DNA from: Comamonadaceae bacterium ALPHA2B
GTDB lineage: Bacteria > Pseudomonadota > Gammaproteobacteria > Burkholderiales > Burkholderiaceae_C
Assembly: GCA_005503065.1 (NCBI GenBank)
Contig: SCOE01000003.1
Span: forward strand, 124,001 to 188,000
DNA length: 64,000 nt
Direction of reading: 5' to 3'
In this document: in pieces, positions 1,054 through 30,179 of the stretch
How positions within the stretch are numbered: position 1 is the first letter of the stretch
Layout of the letters: each line of letters starts with the position of its first letter
Program-made: the position numbers and the translations under genes
Notes under the pieces: generated by a model
The model's input: only the letters and a program-made list of their open reading frames with translations
Database searches by the model: none
Told to the model about the DNA's origin: nothing

Positions 1054-1839
1054 ATGAAAAAAATTGAAATCTCCGAGCGTCACGCTACCTATGCTAAAGC
1101 AGTTTCTTTGGTTATGAACTACAACAACCGGGTCAACAAGCATCTTGGCGTCTGTGCTTACGCATTGAACAATGTGATCGTCGACCAAGAATGGAAGAAT
1201 AGCGCCGACTTCGCTCAATATCTCCTCGATAACGACGAACCTGAAGCATTTCTCAAGTTTTTTGGGAACAAGCCTTTTGTCTTGCAAGAAGACATGTACA
1301 AGGCTTTGAAGCTCCGGCCAGAAAGCTACGCAGAATTGTTGAGCGACTGCTATTGTTTTAGTTGGACTAAAGATCGTAAAGACTTGATTGAAAGCTTCTT
1401 CGAGGAATTTGCGCCGCAACTTAAGCAGGTGCCGGGCAGCTTCTTGCCGGACCGCCACCGTTCCAACAAGCCTCTAATTTTGAAGCTTCTGTTAAAGGAT
1501 TCTAATTACGTGATTTATTTGGCTGATCAAGACTTGGAAGACGCAGTGAAAGTGAATCCCAAATGCTTGGAGCACAAGACCTCCAAGATCACTGGCAGTA
1601 TCACCCTCATGCGTAAGCTTTGTACCGCCAATCCTGAGTGCGCCGTCTATGCCTGCTCTCCTATCACCACCAAGGCCGGCGTGAAGCGCGAGGACAGCAA
1701 CGACGAAAAGAAGCGCAAGGTGAATGCCTGGCTTACTGGCACGGGTGAGAGGAAGGCGCTGAACAACGCAAGTGGTGGTGGAGTGGTAAGGGTTGCCACC
1801 CCCAAGAACACGCCTCCCAAGCCCAAGTTCAAGATTTAA
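1054..1839 (+). CDS. Unknown protein with KPKFKI tail
   Basis: A 261-residue cytosolic-looking protein with no signal peptide. The middle (about 150-205) contains pieces resembling the repeated helical pattern of DUF4116 (NKPLILKLLLKDSNYVIYLA, then a second loose copy around ANPECAVYA), but the match is weak. The last 60 residues are low-complexity, basic and glycine-rich and end in PPKPKFKI, the tail shared with several other element proteins. A GGA-type ribosome site lies about 10 bases before ATG. It is the first gene of a tight three-gene unit (next start 11 bp after its stop). The function is unknown. Confidence 0.75.
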   Translation: MKKIEISERHATYAKAVSLVMNYNNRVNKHLGVCAYALNNVIVDQEWKNSADFAQYLLDNDEPEAFLKFFGNKPFVLQEDMYKALKLRPESYAELLSDCYCFSWTKDRKDLIESFFEEFAPQLKQVPGSFLPDRHRSNKPLILKLLLKDSNYVIYLADQDLEDAVKVNPKCLEHKTSKITGSITLMRKLCTANPECAVYACSPITTKAGVKREDSNDEKKRKVNAWLTGTGERKALNNASGGGVVRVATPKNTPPKPKFKI

Positions 1840-1849
1840 GGAGCAAATA

Positions 1850-2512
1850 ATGACACGAATCGTCCAAGCATATATGCCAAAAAACGATAGTTACAAGTCG
1901 ACCAAAAATTGTTTGTTTCAGGTCAATGCACTTCGCAAGCTGGGCATTGTCATTGACGGCGAGCTTACTTTGACGGCCGAGGGCAATTACAACGTTGACG
2001 GAAGCGTCGTAGTCTATGCGGACTATAAGGTTCTGCCTGTTAAGTTTGGCGTAGTCCACGGCTCCTTCTTCGCCAGTGAGGGCGCACTTGAAACACTCGA
2101 AAACTTCCCGAAGAATGTGGGGGGCATTTGCATGGTGAGCGAAAACAACTTGAAAGACCTCAGGGGTGCTCCCCGCTTCGTTGGCGGCAACTTCAATTGC
2201 TACGGCAACAAAATTGAAAGTCTGGAAGGAGCTCCGTTCAGGGTGGGCGGCAACTTCTATTGCCACCTCAACCCTTTGCGAAGTCTTGCTGGGTTCGACT
2301 GTGCGATTGGAGGGGACTTCTTCGGTCCAGAGTGCCTCAGTGACCTGCCTGGAGCCGAACTTCTCCAAGACTTCGAACTTGAGGGCACAACTACGCTTCG
2401 AGCGGCTGGCACCTATATCAAAGCCCTGTACCAGGCGCAGCAAGAGCGTGGTCGCCTCAGCGCAGCGTTATCCAACCGCTACGCAGCAAACAACCGAACT
2501 TTCAAAATCTAA
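1850..2512 (+). CDS. LRR-like beta-repeat protein, copy 1, FKI tail
   Basis: A 220-residue member of the element's paralogous repeat family. Residues about 65-165 hold units of roughly 20 residues of the type xLxxLxGAPxxVGGxFxC (for example LRGAPRFVGGNFNC then LEGAPFRVGGNFYC). Similar repeats occur in phage and mobile-element proteins and form LRR-like beta structures. The N-terminal 60 residues and the C-terminal helix (QAQQERGRLSAALS) are diverged from the other copies, but the protein still ends in TFKI. Start chosen at ATG 1850 because TAAGGAG, which contains the stop of the previous gene, lies just upstream; a longer frame from 1793 overlaps the previous gene and has no ribosome site. 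Confidence 0.8.
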   Translation: MTRIVQAYMPKNDSYKSTKNCLFQVNALRKLGIVIDGELTLTAEGNYNVDGSVVVYADYKVLPVKFGVVHGSFFASEGALETLENFPKNVGGICMVSENNLKDLRGAPRFVGGNFNCYGNKIESLEGAPFRVGGNFYCHLNPLRSLAGFDCAIGGDFFGPECLSDLPGAELLQDFELEGTTTLRAAGTYIKALYQAQQERGRLSAALSNRYAANNRTFKI

Positions 2513-2522
2513 GGAGATATTT

Positions 2523-2918
2523 ATGAACTACAAGCAAATCCGAGACAACGAGTTTCGACAAGCTGAGATTTTCAGCTATGTCGAGGAAGGCGACTACCTG
2601 GCGCAAACCATTGAGCAAGTGAAAACAAACCCAGTATTTCTTTTCTATGTAGATAACGACGAACTGAGGCGCCACATGGAGGAGGAGGAGATTGCCCCCT
2701 ATGTTGAAGAGCTCCACGAGGTCGCCTACGCGAGTTTCAGCGAGAAGTACGGGCCAGAGCTGACACTTCGCTTTCAACAAGCATTTGTGGCATGCGCCCT
2801 CCTCGAACTTCGGCGCTGTTGGTTTGAGCCATATCTAAAAATTGCTTGGATTTTCACTCCTGAGGCCTGCTCCGAGGACGTGCGCAGCACGATTGAAAAA
2901 AGTATTCCAAATTTTTGA
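2523..2918 (+). CDS. Unknown acidic protein, 131 residues
   Basis: Soluble, acidic N-terminal half (runs such as EEEEIAPYVEE) and a helical C-terminal half with two Cys. It ends in SIPNF and lacks the FKI tail. A strong AAGGAGAT ribosome site overlaps the stop of the preceding gene, so it is the last member of the 1054-2918 unit. No family recognised. Short GC hairpins just after the stop (around 2925-2937) could end transcription before the palindromic region. Confidence 0.7.
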   Translation: MNYKQIRDNEFRQAEIFSYVEEGDYLAQTIEQVKTNPVFLFYVDNDELRRHMEEEEIAPYVEELHEVAYASFSEKYGPELTLRFQQAFVACALLELRRCWFEPYLKIAWIFTPEACSEDVRSTIEKSIPNF

Positions 2919-2998
2919 TAACCCCGCCTTCGGCGCTTTGAAAAACATTGTTTGAGCAAACTTCTGCGCTCCACGCGCCCCTTTGCTATCAATTTTGG

Positions 2999-3286
2999 AT
3001 ACCCGCTTATACCCGCCTATACCCGTTTCAAAAATTTTAAAGCGGGTATAACTAAGTTGTTGATTTTATTGAGTTTTTTGCCATTATACCCGTTTACCCG
3101 TTTCATTTTTCAACTTCTACGTGAGAAAAGAAAAATGGACCAAAAACAGTATTTTTACTACATATATAGAAGTTGCAGTTTTGAAACGGGTAAACGGGTA
3201 TTTTGCTGTAAGTTGTTGATTTAATTAGATATTTTTATACCCGCTTTGATTTTTGAGAAACGGGTATAGGCGGGTATAACCGGGTA
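2999..3286. other. Putative origin of replication: 288-bp imperfect palindrome with 12 hexamer sites
   Basis: The gene-free stretch 2919-3379 holds six TACCCG words (starting at 3000, 3010, 3020, 3087, 3095, 3238) and six CGGGTA words (3043, 3187, 3195, 3261, 3271, 3281). The outer triplets have an exact 10-bp period. The left and right arms (about 3000-3050 and 3236-3286) are near-perfect reverse complements. The inner pairs (3087-3100 with 3187-3200, and CAACTTC at 3111 with GAAGTTG at 3169) share the same centre near 3143. AT-rich tracts lie between. AAGTTGTTGATTT also occurs as a direct repeat at 3054 and 3210. It is flanked by a ribbon-helix-helix gene and an SF3-type helicase gene. The architecture suggests a replication origin or a large symmetric operator; function is inferred. 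Confidence 0.6.
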
Positions 3287-3331
3287 CATTCTCGGAATTT
3301 TCAACAAATCAAATAATCGTCATGCAAAAGC

Positions 3332-3359
3332 TTGACAATAAATCAAAAATAAATAGAAT
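3332..3359 (+). promoter_or_regulatory. Promoter for the ribbon-helix-helix gene
   Basis: TTGACA at 3332-3337 and TAGAAT at 3354-3359 with 16-bp spacing, just right of the palindrome and 20 bp before the next ATG. It has the same -35 box and spacing as the other promoters of the element. Confidence 0.65.
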
Positions 3360-3379
3360 ATGTTTAAAAGGGAGACAAT

Positions 3380-3577
3380 ATGAAAGAGAAAAACACAATA
3401 ATGCTATCGAAGCGAGTTCCAAAAAGTCTTGTTAAAGACATGAAAGAGCTCTCGGAGAAATACGGCACAAACTGGACACACGAACTGGTTAGTGCCCTAC
3501 AGCAGCGAGTTGAAAGAATCAAAGCGATTCAACAGCACGCTACAGCACGAAGCCCACAAAGCTTCAACGCGCAATAA
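3380..3577 (+). CDS. Small ribbon-helix-helix (Arc-like) DNA-binding protein
   Basis: 65 residues. It starts with a short beta-strand-like stretch (NTIMLSKRVPKSL) followed by two helices (VKDMKELSEKYG, then WTHELVSALQQRVERI), the layout of Arc/MetJ-type ribbon-helix-helix proteins, with a short disordered tail. ATG 3380 has GGGAG upstream. It is encoded next to the hexamer-rich palindrome and is followed by its own terminator, so it is monocistronic. A role in binding the palindrome (origin or autoregulation) is inferred from position and fold only. Confidence 0.7.
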   Translation: MKEKNTIMLSKRVPKSLVKDMKELSEKYGTNWTHELVSALQQRVERIKAIQQHATARSPQSFNAQ

Positions 3578-3579
3578 AA

Positions 3580-3612
3580 AAGCCGACTCACGCTAATAAG
3601 TCGGCCTTTTAC
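3580..3612 (+). terminator. Terminator after the ribbon-helix-helix gene
   Basis: Stem GCCGACT (3582-3588) pairs with AGTCGGC (3599-3605), followed by CTTTT. Confidence 0.8.
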
Positions 3613-3670
3613 AAGTCTAACTTCCCATGACAAGGAAATTTATCGAACCATAAAGTTCAAAGGTGTTTCT

Positions 3671-5116: not shown

Positions 5117-5127
5117 AGGAGATAACT

Positions 5128-5583
5128 ATGACTTACCAAACCATTACTCAAACTATTTGCTACGTTGACGACTTGGGCTTTGACCGCGAGGAAGAAGTCC
5201 GTATGGAATTTTCACCCAACGGCCTCACAAGCAAAGGGACATTCATTCTGTATGAATGCCCGTCCGACGCCGAGGAAGAGGTAATCAACGAACACAAGGC
5301 CAACTGGGCAATTGAACACCGCTTCGAAGACTTCAGCAACCAAATAAACTATTGGAGCGAGTTCCAATCGTATGTAAATGCTGTGAAGTCCACAAGCGTT
5401 GGAAATATCTGCGAGGCGCTCAACTTCCTCCAGGGCAACGACTACAGCTCAAACGTTATCTACGCTCAAGACTTGCCGCTAATCAAAGACTACGAGATAT
5501 GGAAGATTCAGCAGCAACAACAAATGCTGAACAACGCTATCGCCCAAGCAGCCACACCCGCACCAACAACATTCAAAATATAA
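5128..5583 (+). CDS. Unknown protein with FKI tail, 151 residues
   Basis: Soluble acidic protein, no signal peptide, no recognised domain. The C-terminal 35 residues are Gln/Ala/Pro-rich (QQQQMLNNAIAQAATPAP) and end in TTFKI, so the shared tail is attached through a flexible linker. The AAGGAGAT site overlaps the stop region of the helicase gene (11-bp gap), so the two are probably co-translated. Confidence 0.75.
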   Translation: MTYQTITQTICYVDDLGFDREEEVRMEFSPNGLTSKGTFILYECPSDAEEEVINEHKANWAIEHRFEDFSNQINYWSEFQSYVNAVKSTSVGNICEALNFLQGNDYSSNVIYAQDLPLIKDYEIWKIQQQQQMLNNAIAQAATPAPTTFKI

Positions 5584-5594
5584 GGAGAACAAGA

Positions 5595-6131
5595 ATGACA
5601 ACAACAAAGGAACATTTATTCAAACTGGAGAGAGACATACAGACGGCCACTAACAGACTTGAGGCCACGCAATATCTCCTGCGTAATGTCGAAACCCTTG
5701 AATTCGATTGGATTTTTAAGCATGTATCTGTTAAAGACGGCGCTCCGGTGGTTCATACCTATCCAGCGGCTGTGGAAATTGAGCGGTGCGTCTTCGGAGG
5801 TATTGAGCTTCACCTTTTCGAAACGAAGACGCAATACCGGGTTCTTGAAGCGTACGACATACCGCCAGCACAGTGGGATATTCTTGTAGATATGGCTGAT
5901 GCTTTTGGTCGAAAGGGCCTTGAGCGCTTTGAGCTCTTTTTGAAGCAAGACGAAAAGTGGCGCGATATGTTCACGACGATTGTTTGTTCCGAGTACTCTT
6001 GCGCTGACTTTTGTGACACTTCTCTGTATGAGAACTTTCGCAAATGGAAGGAGCTTCTTGAGTTTAAAGAAGAGCTTGAATACGAGATACCGAAACCTAT
6101 TTCAAACTCAAAGCCGACCATGAAGATTTAA
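5595..6131 (+). CDS. Unknown protein with MKI tail, 178 residues
   Basis: Starts at ATG 5595 after AAGGAGAAC; the TAA of the previous gene is part of the ribosome site. A predicted helical start (EHLFKLERDIQTATNRLEAT) is followed by a mixed domain and an acidic end. The last residues SKPTMKI match the element's shared tail, with Met for Phe. No homologue recognised. It is the third gene of the helicase operon. Confidence 0.72.
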   Translation: MTTTKEHLFKLERDIQTATNRLEATQYLLRNVETLEFDWIFKHVSVKDGAPVVHTYPAAVEIERCVFGGIELHLFETKTQYRVLEAYDIPPAQWDILVDMADAFGRKGLERFELFLKQDEKWRDMFTTIVCSEYSCADFCDTSLYENFRKWKELLEFKEELEYEIPKPISNSKPTMKI

Positions 6132-15202: not shown

Positions 15203-15823
15203 ATGCTGAAAACAAGAGAAGAGATAGAGAAATACATGGAGCGATTTGGCGGCATGGACGACTGGACCATCAACGACCAAGGCGAAGTTGACGTACCGGG
15301 AAACGTCAAGCTTCAACGAAGCTTCTTTCCCGAAGGAAAATTTCCATTCCAATTTGGTACGGTCAGGGGCTCATTTGATTGCTCAAACGCTTCCTTAAAT
15401 AGCTTACTCGGCTCTCCCCACACAGTAGAAGGCGACTTTGATTGCAAAGACAATTTACTTAAGTCATTGACAGGAGCGCCAATCACAGTTCAGGGGTTCG
15501 AGTGTCAACGCAACCCGTTGGCTTCGCTGGGAAACATTGAAACGCATATAAAAAAGATATTTATTGGACCCTATTTACCTGAGTTCCCACATGCGACGCC
15601 TAATATATATTCCTCGTTGAACACACTCGCCAATAGAATCAACACAATTCGCGCCGAAGATTTCAACGCTAAAATCCTTGAACTCAAGCGTATACGCGAA
15701 GAGAAATCGCTCTTTGAGAATTCGATATCCAAAGTGCTCGACACACCACCATTAGGTAAACCTACAAAGCAGGCCGCAGAGCCTCAACCACAGCAACGGG
15801 CAAAGCCAAAATTCAAACTATAA
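15203..15823 (+). CDS. LRR-like beta-repeat protein, copy 2, KPKFKL tail
   Basis: 206 residues. N-terminal module (LKTREEIEKYMERFGG...DWTINDQGEVDV), then PFQFGTVRGSFDC followed by two or three repeat units (LLGSPHTVEGDFDC, LTGAPITVQGFEC). Then a conserved helical module (FNAKILELKRIREEKSLFENSISKVLD) and a Q/P-rich linker ending in RAKPKFKL. The shortest member of the tandem family, with the fewest repeats. TAAGGAG lies before ATG. The same N-module, helix and tail recur in the next three LRR-like genes. A function as a delivered or binding protein is inferred only. Confidence 0.78.
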   Translation: MLKTREEIEKYMERFGGMDDWTINDQGEVDVPGNVKLQRSFFPEGKFPFQFGTVRGSFDCSNASLNSLLGSPHTVEGDFDCKDNLLKSLTGAPITVQGFECQRNPLASLGNIETHIKKIFIGPYLPEFPHATPNIYSSLNTLANRINTIRAEDFNAKILELKRIREEKSLFENSISKVLDTPPLGKPTKQAAEPQPQQRAKPKFKL

Positions 15824-15840: not shown

Positions 15841-16566
15841 ATGCTGGAAACAAGAAAAGAGATAGAGGATTGGCTAAGCCGGTGTTCAGAGGTGTGCGGC
15901 TTTAGAGAATACAAAATCAATGACAATTTGGTTGTTGACGTTAATGGCACTGTGAATCTTGCCAACGCCGACTTGGAAGAAATTCCATTACAGTTTGGTG
16001 TAGTGTCAGGAAGCTTCTACTGCGAGAACAATAAACTCAAATCATTGAAAGGAGCACCACACACAGTCGGAGAAATGTTTGTTTGCTCCAACAACCAAAT
16101 ATCTACACTCAATGGCGGCCCGGAGCTTGTTGGCTGCAGTTTCTTATGCGCAAACAACAGACTCTCCAATCTCACCGGCGCTCCAAAGCTTATTGGGTCA
16201 AATGTCTCGCCTTACCACGATACAGGGAATTTCGATTGCAGATACAACCCGCTCATTGAACTTGGGGCGCCAGAAACACAGCTGTTTGCTCTTGGAAAGT
16301 TTATCTTTACTGGTAATTGTAATTATGAGCCTTCACACATACCAGAACTAACGCGCTTTCAACACTTTTCTCCCTTTGCATCGGAAAAAATATGTGCAGG
16401 CGATTTCAATAGCGTGGTCAACAATCTCAAGCGCATACGCGAAGAGAAAGCACTCTTTGAATCTTCAATTGCTAAGGTGCTCGACACGCCACCATTAGGC
16501 GCACCTACAAAGCAGGCCGCAGAGCCTCAACCACAGCAACGAGCAAAGCCAAAATTCAAACTATAA
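15841..16566 (+). CDS. LRR-like beta-repeat protein, copy 3, KPKFKL tail
   Basis: 241 residues with the same architecture as copy 2: an N-module with EIEDWL...YKINDNLVVDV, then IPLQFGVVSGSFYC and three repeat units with varied faces (LKGAPHTVGEMFVC, LNGGPELVGCSFLC, LTGAPKLIGSNV). Then a helix NSVVNNLKRIREEKALFESS and the tail RAKPKFKL. The helix-to-tail segment is nearly identical at DNA level to its neighbours, while the repeats differ. GAGGGGGA precedes ATG. With the following 194-residue gene it forms one unit of a tandem duplication. Confidence 0.78.
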   Translation: MLETRKEIEDWLSRCSEVCGFREYKINDNLVVDVNGTVNLANADLEEIPLQFGVVSGSFYCENNKLKSLKGAPHTVGEMFVCSNNQISTLNGGPELVGCSFLCANNRLSNLTGAPKLIGSNVSPYHDTGNFDCRYNPLIELGAPETQLFALGKFIFTGNCNYEPSHIPELTRFQHFSPFASEKICAGDFNSVVNNLKRIREEKALFESSIAKVLDTPPLGAPTKQAAEPQPQQRAKPKFKL

Positions 16567-17192: not shown

Positions 17193-17912
17193 ATGCTTGA
17201 AACAAAAGAAGAGATAGAACAGTGGCTGGATAAATATAGCGTTGAAAATTACACAATCAACGAAGATCTAACAGTGGACGTTGCTGGCTCTCTCTACTTA
17301 GAAAGAAAAGGACTTACTGAAATACCAGTTCAGTTTGGCATTGTGACAGGTGAATTTGATTGCTCCAGAAATTCACTATCCTCTTTGAAAGGCGCTCCTC
17401 ATACAGTTTTCGACGACTATAACTGCTCTCGCAATTCGCTTACGTCGTTAGAAGGAAGCCCAAAATGCATAGACGGATATTTTGACTGTTCGTTTAACCA
17501 GATAACTTCATTGAAGGGAGCTCCTGAATCAGTGAGTAAGTATTTTTTATGCGTAGCAAACAAATTGACTACTTTAGAAGGAGCGCCACATGTAGTTGTA
17601 AGAGATTTTTTTTGCTTTGGCAACAACCTCTCCTCTCTTGGAAATATTGAAACCTCTATTGGGCGTCGATTCAAAAGCTCGCCTCTACCTGAGTTTGCCG
17701 CCTTGGCTCAAGTTGACAGCGACGGCGACTACATTGTGACTGCCGAAGACTTCAACGCCAAAGTTCAAGAGCTCAAACGCATACGCGAAGAGAAAGCGCT
17801 CTTCGAATCTTCGATAGCCAAAGTGCTCGACACTCCACCATTAGGTGAACCTACAAATCAGGCTGCAGAACCTCAGCTACAGCAACGCGCTAAACCAAAA
17901 TTCAAACTATAA
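17193..17912 (+). CDS. LRR-like beta-repeat protein, copy 4, KPKFKL tail
   Basis: 239 residues. N-module (KEEIEQWLDKYSVENYTINEDLTVDV), then IPVQFGIVTGEFDC and four regular repeats (LKGAPHTVFDDYNC, LEGSPKCIDGYFDC, LKGAPESVSKYFLC, LEGAPHVVVRDFFC). Then LGNIETSIG, the conserved AKVQELKRIREEKALFESS helix and QQRAKPKFKL. The repeat period is about 21 residues with a Cys or aromatic at each turn. AAGGAGGG precedes ATG. It has the most regular repeats of the family. Confidence 0.8.
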   Translation: MLETKEEIEQWLDKYSVENYTINEDLTVDVAGSLYLERKGLTEIPVQFGIVTGEFDCSRNSLSSLKGAPHTVFDDYNCSRNSLTSLEGSPKCIDGYFDCSFNQITSLKGAPESVSKYFLCVANKLTTLEGAPHVVVRDFFCFGNNLSSLGNIETSIGRRFKSSPLPEFAALAQVDSDGDYIVTAEDFNAKVQELKRIREEKALFESSIAKVLDTPPLGEPTNQAAEPQLQQRAKPKFKL

Positions 17913-18249: not shown

Positions 18250-19020
18250 ATGCTTGAAACGAGAGAAGAGATAGAACAATGGTTAGTTCACCACAACGTT
18301 TCCAACTATGAGATTCGCGACGACTTGACAGTTGACGTAAACACAGGTGTTTACCTTAACTATGTTGAAGACCCAATCAAGGACTATGCGTTTACTACTG
18401 GAGCCCCAATACAGGAAATCTACGCTTGCGAGTACCCTGACGTTGGCCGGATTGGCGACTTTGGAGACGGACATCCACTTATTTATGAATTCAAGCCGAT
18501 TGTCAGTCTTCCCGTTCGCTTTGGCAAAGTAAAGGGCGATTTTATAATCCGCGATAACGGTTTGACTTCACTTGAAGGCTGTCCTACATATGTAGGTGGT
18601 GAATTTGATTGCTCATATAACAATATAAATTCTTTAATCGGCAGTCCGTTAGAGGTTGGGGAGCGTTTTTCCTGTGAAAATAATGAATTGAAAAATCTTA
18701 ATGGCGCACCCAAAAAAATAGGAACAAACTTATATTGCTTTGCGAATCCATTGGAGGAACTGGGAATTATCGAAACACAGATTGGCCAAAATGGAAGATT
18801 TATTTGCACTCCATTGGAAGAATTTGGCCATACCGAGAATGACATTGCGGGTAAAACTTTCAACGCCAAGGTACAAGAGCTCAAGCGCATACGCGAAGAG
18901 AGAGCTCTTTTCGAATCTTCGGTTGCCAAAGTGCTCGACACGCCACCGTTAGGCACAACTGCACCACACGCCGCAGAGCCTCAACAGCAACCACGCGCGA
19001 AACCAAAATTCAAACTATAA
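18250..19020 (+). CDS. LRR-like beta-repeat protein, copy 5, KPKFKL tail
   Basis: 256 residues. It has the family N-module (REEIEQWLVHHNVSNYEIRDDLTVDV), then an extra insertion of about 40 residues (VEDPIKDYAFTTGAPIQEIY...) not present in copies 2-4. Then LPVRFGKVKGDF, three repeats (LEGCPTYVGGEFDC, LIGSPLEVGERFSC, LNGAPKKIGTNLYC), the AKVQELKRIREERALF helix and PRAKPKFKL. AAGGAGGA precedes ATG. Directly upstream of relaxase (18-bp gap), so it is co-expressed with it. Confidence 0.78.
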   Translation: MLETREEIEQWLVHHNVSNYEIRDDLTVDVNTGVYLNYVEDPIKDYAFTTGAPIQEIYACEYPDVGRIGDFGDGHPLIYEFKPIVSLPVRFGKVKGDFIIRDNGLTSLEGCPTYVGGEFDCSYNNINSLIGSPLEVGERFSCENNELKNLNGAPKKIGTNLYCFANPLEELGIIETQIGQNGRFICTPLEEFGHTENDIAGKTFNAKVQELKRIREERALFESSVAKVLDTPPLGTTAPHAAEPQQQPRAKPKFKL

Positions 19021-19038: not shown

Positions 19039-22000
19039 ATGCTTCAGTTCGCAGATGTAAACAACACTGAGTATCACGAGAAACAAATCAACTACTACAC
19101 CAAGCAAGTAGAAGACGCCACGTCCACGCTTGACCCTATGGTGCCCCGCTGCTTCGGCCTGCTGGCTCAAGCTGCTGGACGAGACGGCACTACTTTTACC
19201 GTGGACGAATGGCGGAAAGTGTCCATGGGGTACGACCCATTCCAGAAGGATTGGAGCCGCCACAAGTTGCGCGCCAATGCTCACAAGCTTGATTCGAACT
19301 TCAAGCCCATACCTGAACCCAAAGACGCAGAAAAGAAGAATCGAGATAGCCTTGAAATTGTGTTCAGCTCCGACAAGAGCATTTCAGTGTGGTGGGCCGC
19401 GCAGGACAAAGAAACACAAGACCGCTACTTAGCAGGCGTCAACAAGATTATGGAAGAGACCATGCTTCCACTTTTGAACCGCTTGGCAATGTACGAGCAG
19501 TACAACCAAAAGCTATTTGCCAACGGCCTTGCTTTTGTGTCTTGGTTCAATCACATAGAAAGCCGAGGCGTGGACATGTTTCTCCACACCCACCTAAACC
19601 TGAAGAACTCTGTTCAAGGCCTTGACGGCAAGTACCATGCGCTTTGCTCGGACGCAATCACAAAGGAAAGTGCTCACATAGACGCAGTATGGCAAATGGC
19701 GCACGCCACTATGCTTCGAGAACAGTTTGGCCTCAAGCTTGAAAGCACATACACCAAAGTTGACGCGAAGAACGACTACTTGGCTGAAGACAAGAAGAAC
19801 GTCTTCACATTCAAAGTGGCCGGTGTTTCGAAGGCCCTATGCAAGGAGTACAGCAAGCGTAGTGAGGAAATCAATGCGCAGCTCGAAAAGCTGGGTATCA
19901 CCGAGCACAGCCACCAGGCCTATGACGCCGCAGCACTCGCCCAGGTGTCCACAAGGCAACAAAAGACCGACCTCAACGCTACGCAGCTTCGAGAAGGTTG
20001 GCGCGCAGAGCTGGCACAGAAGTGGAACTACACCGCAGAGAAGGCCAAGCAGCTCAACGACCAGGCCGAACCCAAGCCCATGAAGATTCCCACCGACGCA
20101 GAGCTCATGGAGAGCTTCGACCGCCGCCACATGGACGTTCAGTTCACAGAAGCGCAGTTCAAGAGCCACGTCTACAAGCAACTCATGCTCTGCCAGTCGC
20201 AGGAAGAGATTGAGCGCCGCGCTGAAGAGCTTTTCATGAAGCAGGCCCGGCCCGTCTACGCCCACGGCAAAGAAAACCTCTACCAGGCTATGGAGGCGGA
20301 GACGAACCCACACAAGCGCACTGCGCTACAGCACCACTTGACCCTGCGCAGCTCATACACCGCTCGCTACTTCAAGGAACCTGAAGACGAGGCCATGGCG
20401 ACCTTCAAGGCGCGCGAAGGCGAAACACACCACCAGCTCAACAAGCTCACTGTCGTGAAAGCGCTGGACGCCTACCAGGCTGACCGTTCCACGAAGGACC
20501 GCAAGTTCGCGTTCTCGGCAGGGCAGCTCAACGCCTGTATGGCAGCACTCAGTGAGCCCGGCGCCGTGGTGTCTATCAAAGGCATGGCAGGCACTGGCAA
20601 AACAACTGTCGTTGAGGCCATACGCGAGCAGTACGAGGCACACGGCATGCGTGTCATTGGTACGGCCACTTCTGCCAAGGCGGCCTCTGGCCTTCTTCAA
20701 GAGGGTGGAATCAAGGAAGGTGGCAACACCGCAGAGCTCCTCTTGAAACTCACACCTCAAGGCGACAAACCCGCCAAGCTCACGCTCACGAAAAACGACG
20801 TGGTGATACTGGACGAGGCTGGCATGACCTCTGGGCGCGAGATCTGCCGCTTGGCCGAACACATAAACCGCGCAGGCGCGAAGCTCGTATGTATCGGGGA
20901 CTACGACCAGCTCCAGGCCTTGGGTTCAGGGCTCTTTCGCTCGATTGCCTCTCGCTTCAACACTGTGGAAATGACCGACATACAGCGCCAACGGGACGAC
21001 TGGGGGCGCGAAATGGTGCTGGCCGCAGCTGCAGGCAAAGGCCACGAGGCCGGCATGACCCTGTACGAGAAGGGTTGTATCTCGATCACTGAGAAGACCG
21101 CGCAGCGGTTAGAGGCCATTGCCCGCGACTACCTGGCCGACCGTTCAGCCCCCACACACAAATTCATTGTGGCAAGCCTCAACGAAGACGCCGACCGAAT
21201 CAACGAAGAGGTACAGCGCCAGCAGCTCAAGCGCGGCGATATCTCCGACAAATTGGGTGTTGCTGAAGTGGAAGACGAGGACGGCTACACACGCCGCTTT
21301 CATGTTGGTGAGCGCATAGTCTTCACGAAGAAGACGAAGAACAACGACCCCACGGTGTTCAACTACGCGGCCAACAGCGATACCGGGCACGTCAGGCGTA
21401 TCGAGCATAGAAAGGGCAAGCTGCGCTGTATCACCGTGGAGCTCGACAACGGCAAAGAACTCACCTTGAGCCCGAAGGATTGCCGCAACCTCAAGCTCGG
21501 CGCCGCCCTCACCACGCACAAGAGCCAAGGAGCCACGGTGGTGAACAGCTACCTCTTCGCCAGCAACCAGATGGCCAACCTTCACCAGTTCTATGTGCAG
21601 CTCTCACGGCACAAGGAAAACACGCGCCTCTACCTCTCCGAGGACCAGGTGAACAAGTTGGCCGAAGCGGCACGCCTGGCGAAACCCGCCCCTGCGCAAC
21701 AAGGCTGGGCGCACGACCTCATAGACCGCGACCTGGCAAGCCAGAAAATCACCCAAGAGCGCGCCAAAGAGCTGCGGGAGTTGTGCGAAACATTCCAGGG
21801 TTGCCGCGAATACCTGAACTCTCACAGCGAAGCCTACAAGGCCGACGCCAACGTGTCTCGCCAAAAGCTCATGGAAACGAAGACCATGCGGGACTTTGTG
21901 AGCCTCTTTGAGGCGTACAGCAAGGCCAACCACAAGAAGAGCACCCAGGAGCTCGACCTACTCTCCGAGCCTCACCAAAAGCGTCTTGAGGAAGTGCGCC

Positions 22001-22125
22001 AACTGCTCAACGCCAAGCAGCATGTCAAAGCGCAACCCCTTCCAGTTCAAGAGACCACTCAAGCGCCCTCGCCTCAAAACGAATCGCCAAAAAGGAAACT
22101 CTCACCTACGCTCGCAATGGTTTGA
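19039..22125 (+). CDS. MobF relaxase-helicase (TraI/TrwC-like)
   Basis: 1028 residues. The N-terminal relaxase domain has candidate catalytic tyrosines in EYHEKQINYY (Y12, Y19, Y20) and the three-histidine metal site FNHIESRGVDMFLHTH (about 172-187). The C-terminal RecD2-like helicase has Walker A GMAGTGKTT (about 514-522), DEAGM (about 591), a Q-rich motif DYDQL and HKSQGATV (about 826). This fits the MobF family: it nicks oriT, stays attached to the 5' end and unwinds the strand for transfer. The last residues SPKRKLSPTLAMV form a basic tail that shares SPKRK with the end of the next gene product. GAGGGAGGA precedes ATG. Last gene of the long transfer operon; a terminator follows. No symbol assigned because nomenclature differs between systems. 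Confidence 0.92.
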   Translation: MLQFADVNNTEYHEKQINYYTKQVEDATSTLDPMVPRCFGLLAQAAGRDGTTFTVDEWRKVSMGYDPFQKDWSRHKLRANAHKLDSNFKPIPEPKDAEKKNRDSLEIVFSSDKSISVWWAAQDKETQDRYLAGVNKIMEETMLPLLNRLAMYEQYNQKLFANGLAFVSWFNHIESRGVDMFLHTHLNLKNSVQGLDGKYHALCSDAITKESAHIDAVWQMAHATMLREQFGLKLESTYTKVDAKNDYLAEDKKNVFTFKVAGVSKALCKEYSKRSEEINAQLEKLGITEHSHQAYDAAALAQVSTRQQKTDLNATQLREGWRAELAQKWNYTAEKAKQLNDQAEPKPMKIPTDAELMESFDRRHMDVQFTEAQFKSHVYKQLMLCQSQEEIERRAEELFMKQARPVYAHGKENLYQAMEAETNPHKRTALQHHLTLRSSYTARYFKEPEDEAMATFKAREGETHHQLNKLTVVKALDAYQADRSTKDRKFAFSAGQLNACMAALSEPGAVVSIKGMAGTGKTTVVEAIREQYEAHGMRVIGTATSAKAASGLLQEGGIKEGGNTAELLLKLTPQGDKPAKLTLTKNDVVILDEAGMTSGREICRLAEHINRAGAKLVCIGDYDQLQALGSGLFRSIASRFNTVEMTDIQRQRDDWGREMVLAAAAGKGHEAGMTLYEKGCISITEKTAQRLEAIARDYLADRSAPTHKFIVASLNEDADRINEEVQRQQLKRGDISDKLGVAEVEDEDGYTRRFHVGERIVFTKKTKNNDPTVFNYAANSDTGHVRRIEHRKGKLRCITVELDNGKELTLSPKDCRNLKLGAALTTHKSQGATVVNSYLFASNQMANLHQFYVQLSRHKENTRLYLSEDQVNKLAEAARLAKPAPAQQGWAHDLIDRDLASQKITQERAKELRELCETFQGCREYLNSHSEAYKADANVSRQKLMETKTMRDFVSLFEAYSKANHKKSTQELDLLSEPHQKRLEEVRQLLNAKQHVKAQPLPVQETTQAPSPQNESPKRKLSPTLAMV

Positions 22126-22150
22126 TAGACCACACGCCAAGCGCCAATCA

Positions 22151-22178: not shown

Positions 22179-22189
22179 TTGCCAAAAAC

Positions 22190-22217
22190 TTGACAAACGG
22201 GGCCTTTCTGCTACTTT
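22190..22217 (+). promoter_or_regulatory. Promoter of the DUF4116/LRR gene
   Basis: TTGACA (22190-22195), 16 bp, TACTTT (22212-22217) with TGC; then GAAATAACAAC. Same family as 11302 and 27913. Confidence 0.78.
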
Positions 22218-22244
22218 GAAATAACAACTACAAAAGGAGGCACT

Positions 22245-24644
22245 ATGGAGAAAAAAGACAGTCGCTCACTATGGAAGCGCGTAAAAGAAACGCTCAAAAC
22301 AATCAAACCCGTTGAACCCGGAAGCTACAAAGCTCGCTCGCTCAGTATCGAGGCTCAGCGAGATAACGCAATCAACTGGCTTTCCAAGCAACCCTACATA
22401 GAGCGCAAAAGTGAAGGCTTTGGCTCTGATATTCCTGACCACCTACTTGAAGACCAAGAGTTTGCCCGTGAGCTTCACGAGCGCTTTGGTGAGAAGGTGG
22501 CCGACCGGGTGATTCCCTTGGAAGTGCGCCGCTCCGCTGAGTACCAAGCCGCCACCACAGAAAACTACAACTTTCTCAATGCTGCCCTTAAGCATGACGA
22601 GGTAGCGCTTCAGTTGCCCACAAAAGACCACAGCGAAAACTTCAGCGACACCGACAAGCTCCACGCCATTGAAACTGTGCGCCGCATGGGTCCAGAGGAA
22701 GCATTGCAGTTCTTGACCAAAGAGCTAAATGAAGACCCTACGTTATTAAGGGATCAAGCAGAGTACATGCCTGGATACGCTCCTAAGCTCACCGAAGTGC
22801 AGCGCCGAGCTTTAAGCTGTATGAGCGACGAGGTGCTCACGGACAGAAACTTTCTTCTTGCCATTGATAAGGCAGGTGTCAATCTTCATGCGCTACCTCA
22901 ACACATACGCGACAACGACAAGCTCATGGCGGAATGCGTCGCAGAGTCCCCATTCTTCTTTGAAGTAGCAAGTAAAAACATTCGCTCTAACCAAGAGTGC
23001 CTTGAGGCGTCACTCAAGTCTATTGAAAACTTGGACTATGACAGTCACGAGAAAGTCTTTAGCGCGAGAAGCCAGGCAGCAACAAATTACTCCAAAGCCT
23101 CGATTGAATTGCGCAGCAAAGCAGAGAACTTCACGCTTGCTAACAGCTACAGCTTGAGCCAAGTTGCCGTTCGAGACGTCCCAGAGTCCATACGCAACGA
23201 CAAAACCGTTATCGAGGAGCAGCTACTAAACGACCCCAACGCTCTTCGGTTCGCAAGTCGCGAGCTGCGCAAAGACCGCCAATTTATCTTGAACATGACT
23301 GAGCGCTACAGAATTGACGTTCCAAGAGCAGACCTAATCAAAGACAGAGACATTGCCGCAAACCTTGCTCGTACCGATTCTGTCCAGCTTCACAACTTGC
23401 CAGACGACTTGAAGAACGACAGAGATTTTGTAGCTCAAGTGGTGAAGCTCAACCCCGAGCAGCTTGAGTACGCAAAGCCTGAATTTCAAGACGATTACGA
23501 GATAGCCTACAACGCCGTCTCACAGAAATCTGACAGATACGCCGCCTTACAACATTGCTCCAGCAGACTTCAGGCAGACCCTTCTATTGTCTACAAGGCA
23601 GTTGAGAGCAACGGCTACAACATAATTTATGCAAGCCACGACCTTCAAGATAATTTCGCCATGGGCATGCATGTGGTTCAAAACGAACCATGGGCCGTCA
23701 AACAATTACCTATAAATCTTCGCAATAACTTGGAGATTGCCAAAGAGGTGATAGCAAGAGTGCCTTCAGCTTCCACCGGGCTTGGCGAAGAAGTTAAGAA
23801 GAACCTGATTGCCAGCCTCTCTCCAGAAGATAAAGCGCAGTATGACTACTGGTTTACGGAAAACGAGCCAGAGGTAGTGGGCCGCTATATTTCCAAAGGG
23901 CTGGAGCCTTACCTCATTAAGTTAGAGAGAGAAGAGCTCGAAACGCACCTTGAAGAGTTTAGGGAACGAGAAGTGCAACGCATTAAATCAAGCACAGAAC
24001 TCACCAACGAGCGGGACATTAAGCTTTGGCTCGATAGCTACGGCGTAGAGAACTACACCATAAACAATGACTTGACGGTTGACGTTCATGGAGACGTAAA
24101 CCTGAGAAATAAAACGACAGGTGATGTAATCCCTACTGATTACAATTTTGCCGGTGAACTCAATCACACCGTAGTTGACGAGAAGTTATCCGCAATCCCT
24201 TTTCAATTCGGCATTGTTGAGGGGTCCTTCGATATCTCCGGAAACTCCTATGGGATAGATTTTGAATCTTCTGGGCTGACCAGCTTAAAGGGCGCTCCCC
24301 GTGAAGTCAAAGGCGACTTTGATTGCTCGGAGAATGTGAGATTGACCGACACTGACAATTTGCCAAAATTTATAGGTGGCGCGCTAAAATACGCCGGAAC
24401 TGCTATGCCCGAGGAGAAAATTCGCGCCTATTTGATAGTCAACGAGAAAGAAAAGTTAGGTAGGCAAGTGGCTATCGCTGAACAAGCCCCTACTCTCACC
24501 GCCGAGCAGTCAGTTAACAAATTGCTGAGCGACGTTCTCGCTTCGACTGACTTGGGTGTATCGAGTAAGCCCACTACTACTCCAGTAGCCCAAGCCATTG
24601 CCCCTACTCAAAGCGCTTCACCCAAACGCAAACACAAGATTTGA
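22245..24644 (+). CDS. DUF4116-repeat protein fused to an LRR-like domain, SPKRKHKI tail
   Basis: 799 residues. Residues about 100-560 are a chain of helical repeats of the DUF4116 type (consensus like LQxDxxIVYKAVxxNGYxxIYAS, with ELRKDRQFIL, DLKNDRDFVAQVVKLNPEQLEYA). From about 590 it repeats the element's LRR family: IKLWLDSYGVENYTINNDLTVDV, then IPFQFGIVEGSFDI, LTSLKGAPREVKGDFDC, and the linker LLSDVLASTDLG corresponding to KVLDTPPLG in the array genes. It ends in ASPKRKHKI, joining the FKI-type end to the SPKRK block of relaxase. DUF4116 has no defined function; I recall it from large repeat proteins, including some Legionella proteins. Encoded between relaxase and the coupling protein; a delivered effector role is inferred. 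Confidence 0.8.
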   Translation: MEKKDSRSLWKRVKETLKTIKPVEPGSYKARSLSIEAQRDNAINWLSKQPYIERKSEGFGSDIPDHLLEDQEFARELHERFGEKVADRVIPLEVRRSAEYQAATTENYNFLNAALKHDEVALQLPTKDHSENFSDTDKLHAIETVRRMGPEEALQFLTKELNEDPTLLRDQAEYMPGYAPKLTEVQRRALSCMSDEVLTDRNFLLAIDKAGVNLHALPQHIRDNDKLMAECVAESPFFFEVASKNIRSNQECLEASLKSIENLDYDSHEKVFSARSQAATNYSKASIELRSKAENFTLANSYSLSQVAVRDVPESIRNDKTVIEEQLLNDPNALRFASRELRKDRQFILNMTERYRIDVPRADLIKDRDIAANLARTDSVQLHNLPDDLKNDRDFVAQVVKLNPEQLEYAKPEFQDDYEIAYNAVSQKSDRYAALQHCSSRLQADPSIVYKAVESNGYNIIYASHDLQDNFAMGMHVVQNEPWAVKQLPINLRNNLEIAKEVIARVPSASTGLGEEVKKNLIASLSPEDKAQYDYWFTENEPEVVGRYISKGLEPYLIKLEREELETHLEEFREREVQRIKSSTELTNERDIKLWLDSYGVENYTINNDLTVDVHGDVNLRNKTTGDVIPTDYNFAGELNHTVVDEKLSAIPFQFGIVEGSFDISGNSYGIDFESSGLTSLKGAPREVKGDFDCSENVRLTDTDNLPKFIGGALKYAGTAMPEEKIRAYLIVNEKEKLGRQVAIAEQAPTLTAEQSVNKLLSDVLASTDLGVSSKPTTTPVAQAIAPTQSASPKRKHKI

Positions 24645-24652
24645 GGTAAGGC

Positions 24653-26755: not shown

Positions 26756-26779
26756 GTGAACAACTAAAAAGGAGGAGAT

Positions 26780-27880: not shown

Positions 27881-27906
27881 AAAATACGCCTTCGGGCGTA
27901 TTTTTA
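27881..27906 (+). terminator. Terminator of the coupling-protein operon
   Basis: AAATACGCC, loop TTCG, GGCGTATTTTT: 9-bp stem with T run directly after the stop codon. Confidence 0.88.
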
Positions 27907-27912
27907 TTGCGC

Positions 27913-27940
27913 TTGCTTTTTGACGATTTTCTGCTACTTT
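27913..27940 (+). promoter_or_regulatory. Promoter of the ardC operon
   Basis: TTGCTT (27913-27918), 16 bp, TACTTT (27935-27940) with TGC; then GAAATAACAACA. The -35 box is weaker than in the other family members. Confidence 0.62.
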
Positions 27941-27970
27941 GAAATAACAACATTATTTCAAGGAGGCAGC

Positions 27971-28999
27971 ATGCCACATAACAATCAAAAAATTGCCGAA
28001 TCATTTTTAGGTGATAAAGACGGCGTTAAGGTCGCTTTTCACCAAGAGTCCGATTCATACTACATTCAAATTGAAGACTACGCGCTTCGCAATCACACAA
28101 GATTTTCCAGAGACTTTAGGTCTTACTTTACTCAAGCCCCACAGTGGGATAGCAAAACCAAGTCATATGTGGTTCAGGGTGCCAAAGAGGAGGCAATTTT
28201 TCAGGCCGTTGGCTATGCGAGAAGCGCGAGTGCGGAACTTCAGCACTTCAAGTCAACTGCCCTTGAAGATATCAAGCGCGATTTGTGGCAAGACATAGAC
28301 GACCACGAAAGAGCCGAATTCAACCAGCGGCTACAGGACGCCATGGCGTACCGGACCGACCACCCAGACGAGATAGCGAAGCTTCCGCCGCTACCTGAGC
28401 GCTACCCCCACCCAGTGCTCAAAGAAACATACGCGAACACCAGGGACGGCGCGTACAGCAATGGGCCAATCGTTGCTATCACAGATTACTTCGTCGTTCA
28501 GTACACCAGTCGCGGCAAGCTGAATGAAGACCGGGTGTCCAAAAATCCAGAGCACTGGATAACACTTCACTCCACGGACAAGTTTCTACATTCACCGCAG
28601 GACTGGCAGAACCCACGCCAAGCAATAGAGCGGGCTATGGGCGTTTGGGAGAACCAAGAGGGCCAGCCTCGACTACAGCGCCCTTGGAAGAGCATTGAGT
28701 ACAACTCTTCCATGAAGGCCAATGTCTTCGAGTATCAGCGCGACCTCCACTCACCAAAGGCCCGCAAGCTCCTGGCTGAGCAACTGGCTCAATTAAGCCA
28801 GCAAGTAGAGCAGCGCACACAAACCTCAACACCCACTCAAACTCCAGAAGCTCAACCACTGGTTGCCGCAAAAGCCGCGAAGGTGCGCCTCAAAGAAGTC
28901 CACGCCGAACTCAAAGAGGAAGTGAAAAAGCAGGCCAAAGCAAAACCTTCGCGCTCACGCTCCAAGAAGCAAACCCAAAGCCTTGGCATGACTATGTGA
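27971..28999 (+). CDS. Unknown protein, 342 residues, SLGMTM tail (possible KfrB-like segment)
   Basis: Start at ATG 27971 after AAGGAGG; a longer frame from 27920 would run through the promoter. The first 80 residues (VKVAFHQESDSYYIQIEDYAL...SKTKSYVVQG) look like the small beta domain found next to antirestriction and primase-type plasmid proteins. The segment GPIVAITDYFVVQYTSRGKL (about 165-185) resembles KfrB-type domains, a weak match. The C-terminus is a helical, lysine-rich tail ending in KKQTQSLGMTM, close to the ends of ArdC (SMGMRM) and relaxase (TLAMV). Followed 7 bp later by ArdC. Confidence 0.65.
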   Translation: MPHNNQKIAESFLGDKDGVKVAFHQESDSYYIQIEDYALRNHTRFSRDFRSYFTQAPQWDSKTKSYVVQGAKEEAIFQAVGYARSASAELQHFKSTALEDIKRDLWQDIDDHERAEFNQRLQDAMAYRTDHPDEIAKLPPLPERYPHPVLKETYANTRDGAYSNGPIVAITDYFVVQYTSRGKLNEDRVSKNPEHWITLHSTDKFLHSPQDWQNPRQAIERAMGVWENQEGQPRLQRPWKSIEYNSSMKANVFEYQRDLHSPKARKLLAEQLAQLSQQVEQRTQTSTPTQTPEAQPLVAAKAAKVRLKEVHAELKEEVKKQAKAKPSRSRSKKQTQSLGMTM

Positions 29000-29006
29000 G
29001 GCAGCT

Positions 29007-30179
29007 ATGGCAACAAAGAAAGAATTCGACAAACGAGACTATCACCAAGAGCTCACTGACAAATTGGTTGCCAAGATGGAGAGCGCCCAAAATTTGAAGT
29101 GGGAAAAACCATGGTTCACACTGCCACCAATGGCCCCTTACAACGTGGAAACCGGCACGCGCTACTCAGGCTGCAATCTTATGTCCACCGCTTTGTCAGG
29201 ACACAACGACCCACGCTGGCTCACATTCAACGGCATGAGAAGCTATGGCAAGAAAAACAACCTTGATTTGAAAGTGAGAAAAGGCGAGAAAGGAACACCC
29301 ATTTTCAAAGCATTTGTCAAGGAGATAACAGAGGACAAGAATGGTGTTGAGCTCGACAAACCACGCAAGATAGTTTTCATGGCCTACGCGGGAACCGTAT
29401 TCAACGCTGAGCAAATCGACGGCATGCCACCCCTTGAGCAGCAAAAACGCCGAGACTTCAATCCAGTGTTCGCGGGCGAACAACTGAAAGATTCACTGGT
29501 TGAAAGAACGAAACTCGAACTGGTCGAAAGTCCAAGGGGCGCATGGTATCGACCAACAACTCACACAGTAGGCATGCCCAAAGCTGAACACTTCAAGTCC
29601 GAGGCGCTCTACTACGACACTCTACTTCACGAGTTCGGCCACTCCACTGGGCCTGCACTTAACCGAAAAATGGAAGGGCTACACGGCTCCGAAAGCTACG
29701 CCTATGAAGAGCTCATTGCTGAACTCTCGTCTTGCTTTATGGCTGCTGAACTGGGCGTACACCATGACCAGTACGCACACGACCAAAATGCCGCATACCT
29801 GAATTCTTGGCTCAAAGCGCTGAAAGACGACAAGAACCTGATTTTCAAAGCTTCAAACGCTGCCTCCAGAGCCTCTAACTATCAAATGGAGCACCTACGC
29901 GAGTATCTCTATGAGCTCAACATGAAGCACACAGCAACACCGCAGCAAAACGAGCTACTTGAAAGCATTGGCGTTCCGGAGCGGGTCTTGAAGCAGCTAC
30001 ACACAGAGAAAGCCGAGGAGCAGCTCGAATCACGCCAGGAAGAGCGAGCTCAGGCGATTGAGGTGAGCCCTACCCCGAGCATGGACGCCCGGCAGTTCTT
30101 GGAAACCCTTAAGACCGAGCAAGGCATGGCGCCTCAGGTGATTGCCCGTCCCCGACCCTCTATGGGCATGCGTATGTAG
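29007..30179 (+). CDS. ardC: ArdC-like antirestriction protein (ssDNA-binding domain plus zincin)
   Basis: 390 residues. The N-terminal ArdC/DUF1738 ssDNA-binding domain (KWEKPWF..., YSGCNLMST, MRSYGKKNNLDLKVRKGEKG) occupies about 1-130. A zincin domain follows with HEFGH (about 208-212) and the downstream YEELIAELSSCF helix carrying a third ligand Glu. ArdC of other conjugative plasmids binds ssDNA, protects incoming DNA against restriction in the recipient and has been reported to travel with transfer. The Glu/Gln-rich tail ends in RPRPSMGMRM, matching the neighbour's SLGMTM. Second gene of a two-gene operon. Confidence 0.85.
   Translation: MATKKEFDKRDYHQELTDKLVAKMESAQNLKWEKPWFTLPPMAPYNVETGTRYSGCNLMSTALSGHNDPRWLTFNGMRSYGKKNNLDLKVRKGEKGTPIFKAFVKEITEDKNGVELDKPRKIVFMAYAGTVFNAEQIDGMPPLEQQKRRDFNPVFAGEQLKDSLVERTKLELVESPRGAWYRPTTHTVGMPKAEHFKSEALYYDTLLHEFGHSTGPALNRKMEGLHGSESYAYEELIAELSSCFMAAELGVHHDQYAHDQNAAYLNSWLKALKDDKNLIFKASNAASRASNYQMEHLREYLYELNMKHTATPQQNELLESIGVPERVLKQLHTEKAEEQLESRQEERAQAIEVSPTPSMDARQFLETLKTEQGMAPQVIARPRPSMGMRM

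What the first reader, a model, noticed from the sequence alone, without database searches (positions are those of the whole stretch)
1054..30179. Two recurring C-terminal tails on at least 12 unrelated element proteins: possible type IV secretion signals
Seen: proteins ending at 1839, 2512, 5583, 6131, 15823, 16566, 17912, 19020 and 24644 end in KPKFKI, TFKI, TFKI, TMKI, KPKFKL (four times) and KRKHKI. Relaxase, the 342-residue protein and ArdC end in SPTLAMV, SLGMTM and SMGMRM. Relaxase and the DUF4116/LRR protein share SPKRK just before the end. The tails follow flexible Q/P/K-rich linkers and sit on different folds. Known: relaxase is translocated in conjugation, ArdC of other plasmids is reported to be, and several type IV secretion signals are C-terminal and basic. 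Inferred: the tails are a common address for the coupling protein (which has a strongly acidic C-terminus), defining a delivered protein set. Competing explanation: part of the similarity reflects stop codons merged with TAAGGAG ribosome sites, or simple gene duplication in the four array genes.
Basis: partly seen in the sequence, partly recalled or inferred. Interest (0 to 1): 0.92.

Follow-up and report, generated by a model that had tools for sequence, protein, structure and literature searches.

The report
Shared protein tails on conjugative element
A mobile DNA element in a bacterium puts the same short end-tag on several unrelated proteins, most simply read as an address for exporting them together with the element's DNA, though no experiment has shown export yet.

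Summary
The tails are real. The window holds a 35.5-kb element in a tRNA-Met gene (46-bp repeats). Nine of 26 listed element proteins end in [FMH]K[IL]; 0 of 495 genes called elsewhere in the genome and 0 of 837 called on 25 other element stretches do. KPKFK[IL]-stop occurs five times in the genome, all here, and not in 298 other family genomes. 'Unrelated' is overstated: six of nine share an LRR-like domain, leaving four families, plus three for the second tail. Family-collapsed sharing exceeds internal-segment controls (0, 5 and 0 of 1000 for 4, 5, 6 residues), less so other elements' tails (0.9, 7.3, 1.3%). Merged stop/ribosome sites elsewhere lack the tail (0 of 21).

The second tail is weaker and the relaxase fits poorly. 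An Azonexus relative's relaxase and ArdC end alike; plasmid pVb1978's relaxase, ArdC and three others end [DE]xER. But only that one of 11 ArdC-bearing named plasmids shows clear relaxase-ArdC sharing.

A private C-terminal T4SS address is the best explanation (0.45); a docking tag for another partner is the main rival.

The parts
1054..1839 (+). 261-aa protein of unknown family, tail PKPKFKI (set 1)
   Evidence: no Pfam or PHROG match; no match at E 1e-4 in 339 other genomes of the order
1850..2512 (+). 220-aa LRR-like protein, tail RTFKI (set 1)
   Evidence: homologous to the array genes
5128..5583 (+). 151-aa protein of unknown family, tail TTFKI (set 1)
   Evidence: no Pfam or PHROG match
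5595..6131 (+). 178-aa protein of unknown family, tail KPTMKI (set 1); stop codon not merged with a ribosome site
15203..15823 (+). LRR-like array gene 1, tail RAKPKFKL
15841..16566 (+). LRR-like array gene 2, tail RAKPKFKL
17193..17912 (+). LRR-like array gene 3, tail RAKPKFKL
18250..19020 (+). LRR-like array gene 4, tail RAKPKFKL
19039..22125 (+). MobF (TrwC-type) relaxase-helicase, end SPKRKLSPTLAMV (set 2, poor fit)
   Evidence: Pfam PF08751 and PF13604; NCBIfam NF041492 over its cut-off
22245..24644 (+). DUF4116 repeats plus C-terminal LRR-like domain, tail SPKRKHKI (set 1)
   Evidence: PF13475
24653..26755 (+). TrwB/TraD-type coupling protein with acidic patch at residues 601-640; presumed reader of the tails (inferred)
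   Evidence: PF10412
27971..28999 (+). 342-aa protein of unknown family, tail QSLGMTM (set 2)
   Evidence: no match in the plasmid collection or in 339 other genomes of the order
29007..30179 (+). ArdC-type antirestriction protein (ArdcN + MPTase-PolyVal), tail RPSMGMRM (set 2)
   Evidence: PF08401 and PF18818
31290..32678 (-). tyrosine integrase of the element
   Evidence: PF00589 and PF13356
32880..32925 (+). attR, 46-bp repeat of a tRNA-Met 3' end; the partner attL lies outside the window at -2579..-2534 (contig C33:121421-121466)

Best explanation
The tails are short C-terminal type IV secretion addresses, usually a flexible linker, then basic residues, then a hydrophobic-x-hydrophobic end, carried by proteins that the element sends into the recipient with its DNA. 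The element's own coupling protein, perhaps through its acidic patch, would collect the relaxase, ArdC, the 342-aa protein and the LRR/DUF4116/unknown proteins and pass them to a helper T4SS, because no channel protein was recognised on the element. Shown: the tails, their restriction to the element, their presence on unrelated families, protein-level constraint in the array, gene neighbourhood with relaxase and coupling protein, and some similar sharing on other conjugative elements. Inferred: recognition by the coupling protein, translocation, helper use.
For: Specificity: 9 of 26 element proteins against 0 of 332, 0 of 495 and 0 of 837; KPKFK[IL]-stop only in this element among 299 family genomes. 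Independence: with the last ten residues trimmed, carriers are unrelated by phmmer except the LRR group; family-collapsed similarity of the last 4 residues 4.5 family pairs against 0.36 for internal segments, 0 of 1000 draws (0.5% for 5 residues, 0 for 6). Constraint: 14 synonymous, 0 non-synonymous. Reported T4SS signals include C-terminal positive and/or hydrophobic ones (passages of PMC11288057, and PMC10025392). Relaxases are translocated (passages); an ArdC is reported to be (recalled). Parallels: Azonexus relative relaxase KRSAMRI, ArdC KKSVAMSM; pVb1978 relaxase, ArdC, LPD7 protein, phosphoribosyltransferase and a 135-aa protein all [DE]xER (ER ends 6 of 47, one of them an integron integrase, against 6 of 825, Fisher p about 1e-5, post hoc); TraI and KfrB share GRS[RM] in p7ME01, the Methylophaga plasmid and R751. 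Over 24 other stretches, within-element pairs of non-homologous proteins with similar last 5 residues (score 13 or more) number 61 of 15863, against 16-30 at six upstream offsets.
Against: No experiment. The relaxase, the one certain substrate of such a system, has the least typical end (LAMV). Of 12 named plasmids read, 11 have an ArdC; a clear relaxase-ArdC match was seen in one (pVb1978) and a loose one in MNS-0; in p7ME01, the Methylophaga plasmid, R751, pAV3334 and pK4022 ArdC and relaxase end differently, and R388, M. bovis, pTHAF9d and Y. aleksiciae plasmids show nothing convincing. The four MobF relatives show no set-1 tail; three of four relaxases end MHR. Net positive last ten residues occur in 10 of 14 non-carriers too. 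TrbJ and TrbK also share a tail (SPxRxW), so shared tails can serve other purposes. Relaxases of R388 and F have internal signals (passages of PMC10025392 and PMC8406263). Against tails of other elements as null, 0.9%, 7.3% and 1.3% of draws reach the observed value for 4, 5 and 6 residues. In the element 3 of 4 genes with a stop merged into a ribosome site carry the tail. Motifs and thresholds were chosen after seeing the data.
Confidence: 0.45

Rival explanations
1. The tails are docking tags for a different shared partner inside the cell (relaxosome, partition or replication complex, a chaperone, or the coupling protein acting in the donor only), without export.
For: TrbJ and TrbK share a tail although they are a channel-operon protein and an exclusion lipoprotein, not cytosolic cargo. 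No channel protein among 30 element proteins scanned by Pfam. Most carriers have no known export function.
Against: The carriers include relaxase and ArdC, known or reported cargo of other systems; the element's DUF5906 helicase, ParA-like protein and integrase lack the tail.
Confidence: 0.25
2. The set-1 similarity is mostly DNA-level: a translation-coupling signal TTCAARHTHTAAG at gene ends, plus duplication in the array.
For: The exact DNA motif occurs 7 times on the + strand of the element, each time at one of these gene ends, and not on the other strand; three of the element's four merged-stop genes carry the tail, and the fourth (5116) ends TFNT from similar DNA; the four arrays share the last five codons and stop at DNA level.
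Against: Lys and Ile codons vary (AAA/AAG; ATT/ATC/ATA); 6131 and 24644 keep MKI and HKI without the DNA motif; KPK is synonymously varied between 1839 and the arrays; 0 of 21 merged-stop genes elsewhere end so.
Confidence: 0.17
3. The tails are stability or proteolysis signals (C-degrons or caps).
For: Short hydrophobic C-termini can be read by bacterial proteases (recalled).
Against: Nothing found here points to it; not tested.
Confidence: 0.07
4. Set 2 is chance: three methionine-rich ends that look alike.
For: Only two proteins (GMTM, GMRM) are close; the relaxase end differs; the rate elsewhere in the genome is 1 of 495.
Against: Binomial p about 0.001 for two of 26 families at that rate (post hoc); the ArdCs of the four MobF relatives end A-[IM]-S-[MI], and an 89-aa protein of two related IncP-type plasmids ends KRGMRM.
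Confidence: 0.3

Closest known systems
C-terminal signals of Agrobacterium VirB/D4 substrates (VirF, VirE2, VirE3, MobA)
   Same: C-terminal, short, positively charged, shared by several substrates of one system (review passages)
   Different: Those have an Arg consensus; here set 1 is Lys/Pro followed by a hydrophobic-x-hydrophobic end, and export is untested
F plasmid (pED208) co-transferred proteins, the conjutome
   Same: Many proteins move through the conjugation machine; some use C-terminal signals (passages)
   Different: No common tail is reported in the passages read; internal signals also occur
Polyvalent proteins and ArdC of conjugative elements (PMC5512222, passages)
   Same: ArdcN with MPTase domain is present here; such proteins are proposed to be delivered with the DNA
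   Different: The passages read do not describe a shared C-terminal address
XVIPCD domain of Xanthomonas X-T4SS effectors (review passage)
   Same: A common C-terminal address read by the coupling protein
   Different: XVIPCD is about 120 residues with a glutamine-rich tail; here only about 4-8 residues are shared

Membership tests
T4SS substrates with a C-terminal signal | short signal at the extreme C-terminus | tested here: met
   linker rich in P/Q/S/T/N/A/K/G in 10 of 12
T4SS substrates with a C-terminal signal | net positive and/or hydrophobic last residues | tested here: inconclusive
   last 10 residues net positive in 12 of 12 carriers and last 25 in 11 of 12, but last 10 also in 10 of 14 non-carriers, so the feature does not discriminate
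T4SS substrates with a C-terminal signal | shared among substrates of one system, absent from non-substrates | tested here: inconclusive
   enriched in the element; the relaxase fits poorly; the true substrate list is unknown
T4SS substrates with a C-terminal signal | required for translocation / bound by the coupling protein | not testable with these tools
Agrobacterium VirB/D4 Arg-type signal | Arg-rich C-terminal consensus | tested here: inconclusive
   by inspection only: set-1 ends are Lys-based; ArdC (ARPRPSMGMRM) and the 342-aa protein (SRSRSKK upstream) do have spaced arginines; no profile of the consensus was run
MobF relaxase | TrwC relaxase domain plus helicase | tested here: met
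   PF08751 113.1 bits, PF13604 142.1 bits; NF041492 107.3 bits against cut-off 100
ArdC antirestriction protein | ArdcN plus zincin-like metallopeptidase domain | tested here: met
   PF08401, PF18818
Integrative mobilizable element | integrase, att repeats at a tRNA gene, relaxase | tested here: met
   46-bp repeats and tRNA-Met; integrase and relaxase
Integrative mobilizable element | no own T4SS channel | tested here: inconclusive
   no channel protein among 30 proteins scanned by Pfam; four left-end genes and several small ORFs were not scanned

The most novel reading that the evidence does not exclude
Many conjugative elements carry a private C-terminal address, a few residues long and different from element to element, shared by relaxase, ArdC and accessory proteins and co-evolving with the coupling protein. 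The set of proteins delivered to the recipient could then be read from sequence alone. In this element two variants of the address mark a delivered set of about a dozen proteins, including a duplicated LRR/DUF4116 repertoire.
Probability: 0.3. Interest if true: 0.85.

Novelty: new variant of a known kind. Interest (0 to 1): 0.6.

Why it matters
What makes a protein a substrate of a conjugation machine is an open question; the F conjutome paper says signals vary considerably and that better knowledge would help prediction (passages). Shared element-specific tails would give a simple, testable rule, predict unknown delivered proteins (LRR, DUF4116 and unknown families here) and offer a natural set of tail peptides for mapping the binding site on a coupling protein.

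Tried and rejected
Close relatives of the element: relaxase and coupling-protein scans of viral contigs found none; an array-protein scan gave 4 loci of 11 matched stretches, with LRR-like proteins and no such tail; the one genome scan gave 4 loci of 21 matched stretches, at 29-32% relaxase identity, without set-1 tails. The 342-aa, array and 1054 proteins have no match in 339 other genomes of the order. A tail scan of viral contigs gave 37 stretches; in 10 an ORF of at least 40 aa ends in KPKFK[IL], 8 of these are called genes and 7 of the 8 look like one protein family by their ends; no stretch had two such tails: unrelated.

'Merged stop and ribosome site' rejected as full cause. 'Only duplication' rejected. 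The claim that the relaxase shares the tail was downgraded. TraI/KfrB sharing may partly reflect a common small domain before the tail; only blastp at 1e-3 was used to exclude homology. My gene caller is a simple codon-score caller that misses some genes, for example 5128-5583, and drops ORFs below a set length, so denominators are approximate.

A search for DUF4116 in print listed two papers, neither on secretion by title and the start of the abstract. Searches for a shared tail on relaxase, ArdC or KfrB listed no paper whose title or shown start of abstract reports it; only passages of PMC5512222, PMC8406263, PMC10025392 and PMC11288057 were seen.

Full report
WHAT IS THERE. The window lies in contig C33 of a 6.0-Mb genome. 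A 46-bp direct repeat, the 3' end of a tRNA-Met(CAU) gene, flanks the stretch from -2579 (outside the window) to 32925, and a tyrosine integrase lies at 31290-32678 on the minus strand. In 1-kb bins G+C is 0.38-0.59 inside and 0.66-0.76 outside, boundary bins apart. This is a 35.5-kb integrative element with a MobF relaxase, a TrwB/TraD-type coupling protein and ArdC. No T4SS channel protein was found in 30 proteins scanned by Pfam; four left-end genes and several small ORFs were not scanned. The genome has four other places that match the coupling-protein family PF02534, possible helpers.

THE TAILS. [FMH]K[IL] at the C-terminus occurs in 9 of 26 listed element proteins, 0 of 332 genes called elsewhere in the genome, and 9 of 7766 internal positions of element proteins. 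A larger sample gave 0 of 495 and, on 25 other stretches around relaxase or ArdC genes, 0 of 837. As DNA, KPKFK[IL]-stop was searched in 299 genomes of the family, own included: five hits, all in this element; one further hit reads TGG, not a stop.

HOW MANY INDEPENDENT FAMILIES. 1850-2512, the array genes and 22245-24644 are homologous; with the last ten residues removed, 1054, 5128, 5595, relaxase, the 342-aa protein and ArdC show no relation to them or to each other at phmmer E 1. So set 1 marks four families and set 2 up to three. With one protein per family (26 families), family pairs with similar ends average 4.5, 2.8 and 3.8 for the last 4, 5 and 6 residues. Internal segments give 0.36, 0.33 and 0.16, and 0, 0.5 and 0% of 1000 draws reach the observed value; tails of other elements give 1.03, 0.96 and 0.76, and 0.9, 7.3 and 1.3% reach it. 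Post hoc binomials for set 1, four of 26 families: 3e-8 at the internal rate, 2e-5 at the rule-of-three bound 3/495. Motif and thresholds were chosen after seeing the data, so these overstate the strength.

DNA OR PROTEIN. In the four array genes the last 8 codons differ only synonymously (14 synonymous, 0 non-synonymous over six non-independent pairs), while the 15 codons before have 16 and 28. The synonymous changes are in the R, A and K codons; the last five codons are identical at DNA level, which recent duplication could explain. Across families Lys is AAA or AAG and Ile ATT, ATC or ATA; 6131 and 24644 keep MKI and HKI with other DNA. The DNA string TTCAARHTHTAAG occurs seven times in the element, always at these gene ends. 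In the element four stops run into a GGAG site (1839, 2512, 5583, 5116) and three of them carry the tail; of 21 such genes elsewhere (6 in the genome sample, 15 on other stretches) none does.

LINKER AND CHARGE. The last 25 residues are at least 60% P/Q/S/T/N/A/K/G in 10 of 12 carriers and 2 of 14 other listed proteins. The last ten are net positive in 12 of 12 carriers but also in 10 of 14 others, so charge does not discriminate.

RELATIVES. One genome scan gave four loci (Zoogloea, Ramlibacter, Azonexus, Propionivibrio) with 29-32% relaxase identity; three carry an ArdC of about 44% identity in the locus, the Zoogloea one on another contig. No homologue of the array, 1054 or 342-aa proteins was found in the 21-23 kb loci or the 84-kb Ramlibacter contig, and no set-1 tail; a 121-aa protein in two of them ends VIKI. 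Their ArdCs end KKGCAISM (Zoogloea, Ramlibacter), KKSVAMSM (Azonexus) and QKSTAISI (Propionivibrio); their relaxases end RSTMHR (two), RSAMRI (Azonexus) and HQTMHR. In the Azonexus element relaxase and ArdC thus end alike.

OTHER CONJUGATIVE PLASMIDS. Twelve named plasmids were read, nine picked from an ArdC search, R388 and R751 as models, one from a coupling-protein search; 11 have an ArdC. In pVb1978 the relaxase, ArdC, an LPD7 protein, a phosphoribosyltransferase and a 135-aa protein end in [DE]xER; ER ends are 6 of 47 there (the sixth an integron integrase) against 6 of 825 in other stretches, the window included (post hoc). In p7ME01, the Methylophaga plasmid and R751, TraI and KfrB share GRS[RM], and in pAV3334 TraI ends GRSR and KfrB GLSR, but their ArdCs end differently. 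In Diaphorobacter MNS-0 relaxase, ArdC, a KfrB-domain protein, a KfrB-like hypothetical, a primase and the coupling protein end GISR, EIAR, AIGR, SLAR, GIER and PMSR, a loose likeness. pK4022 shares SKGGGISM/SRGGGIAID between KfrB and an unknown protein, not with relaxase or ArdC. R388 (relaxase GMEAGR, a 200-aa protein GREHGR) and the Xanthomonas plasmid (relaxase IGVGR, Fic RDFGR) are weak at best; M. bovis, pTHAF9d and Y. aleksiciae show nothing convincing. Over 24 stretches without the window, pairs with similar last 5 residues (score 13 or more) are 61 of 15863 against 16-30 at six upstream offsets; at 17 or more, 14 against 1-6. Several stretches are related, so these counts are not independent. 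TrbJ and TrbK also share an end (SPxRxW), a warning that tails may mark other interactions.

MECHANISM. I favour a T4SS address read by the element's coupling protein, whose residues 601-640 carry net charge -17 and are followed by 60 residues of net +2. The carriers lie in two same-strand runs, 1054-6131 and 15203-30179, the latter with relaxase and coupling protein. The coupling protein, ParA-like protein, integrase and DUF5906 helicase lack the tail. Export, binding and helper use are inferred. Main weakness: the relaxase, the certain substrate, has the least typical end, and relaxases of F and R388 have internal signals (passages of PMC8406263 and PMC10025392).

STATUS. C-terminal T4SS signals are known; an element-private tail shared across unrelated proteins is, as far as my searches of a partial library go, not reported in the titles, abstract starts or passages seen.

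Noticed in passing
-2579..-2534 (outside the window, contig C33:121421-121466) and 32880-32925: 46-bp att repeats at a tRNA-Met gene give the ends of a 35.5-kb integrative element.
   Followed up: yes
L021:17643-18629 and L021:19145-19801 (left end of the element, outside the window): A 328-aa protein ending KPTKKIRPFGL and a 218-aa protein (DUF4116-like by eye) ending STRSNGKL: possible further, divergent tail carriers.
   Followed up: no
window 16592-17176 and 17845-18234: A second protein, 90% identical over 84 residues, is duplicated and interleaved with the LRR array, suggesting duplication of a two-gene unit; its end (SLAAKQ) is not a set-1 tail.
   Followed up: partly
window 3671-5116: DUF5906 primase/helicase-like protein ends DTFNT from DNA close to that of the TFKI ends, before a TAAAGGAG site.
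   Followed up: partly
L130, L154 and L170 (IncP-type plasmids): TrbJ and TrbK, neighbours in the trb operon, share a C-terminal SPxRxW-like tail although TrbK is an exclusion lipoprotein.
   Followed up: no
L132 (pVb1978): Five plasmid proteins including relaxase and ArdC end in [DE]xER.
   Followed up: partly
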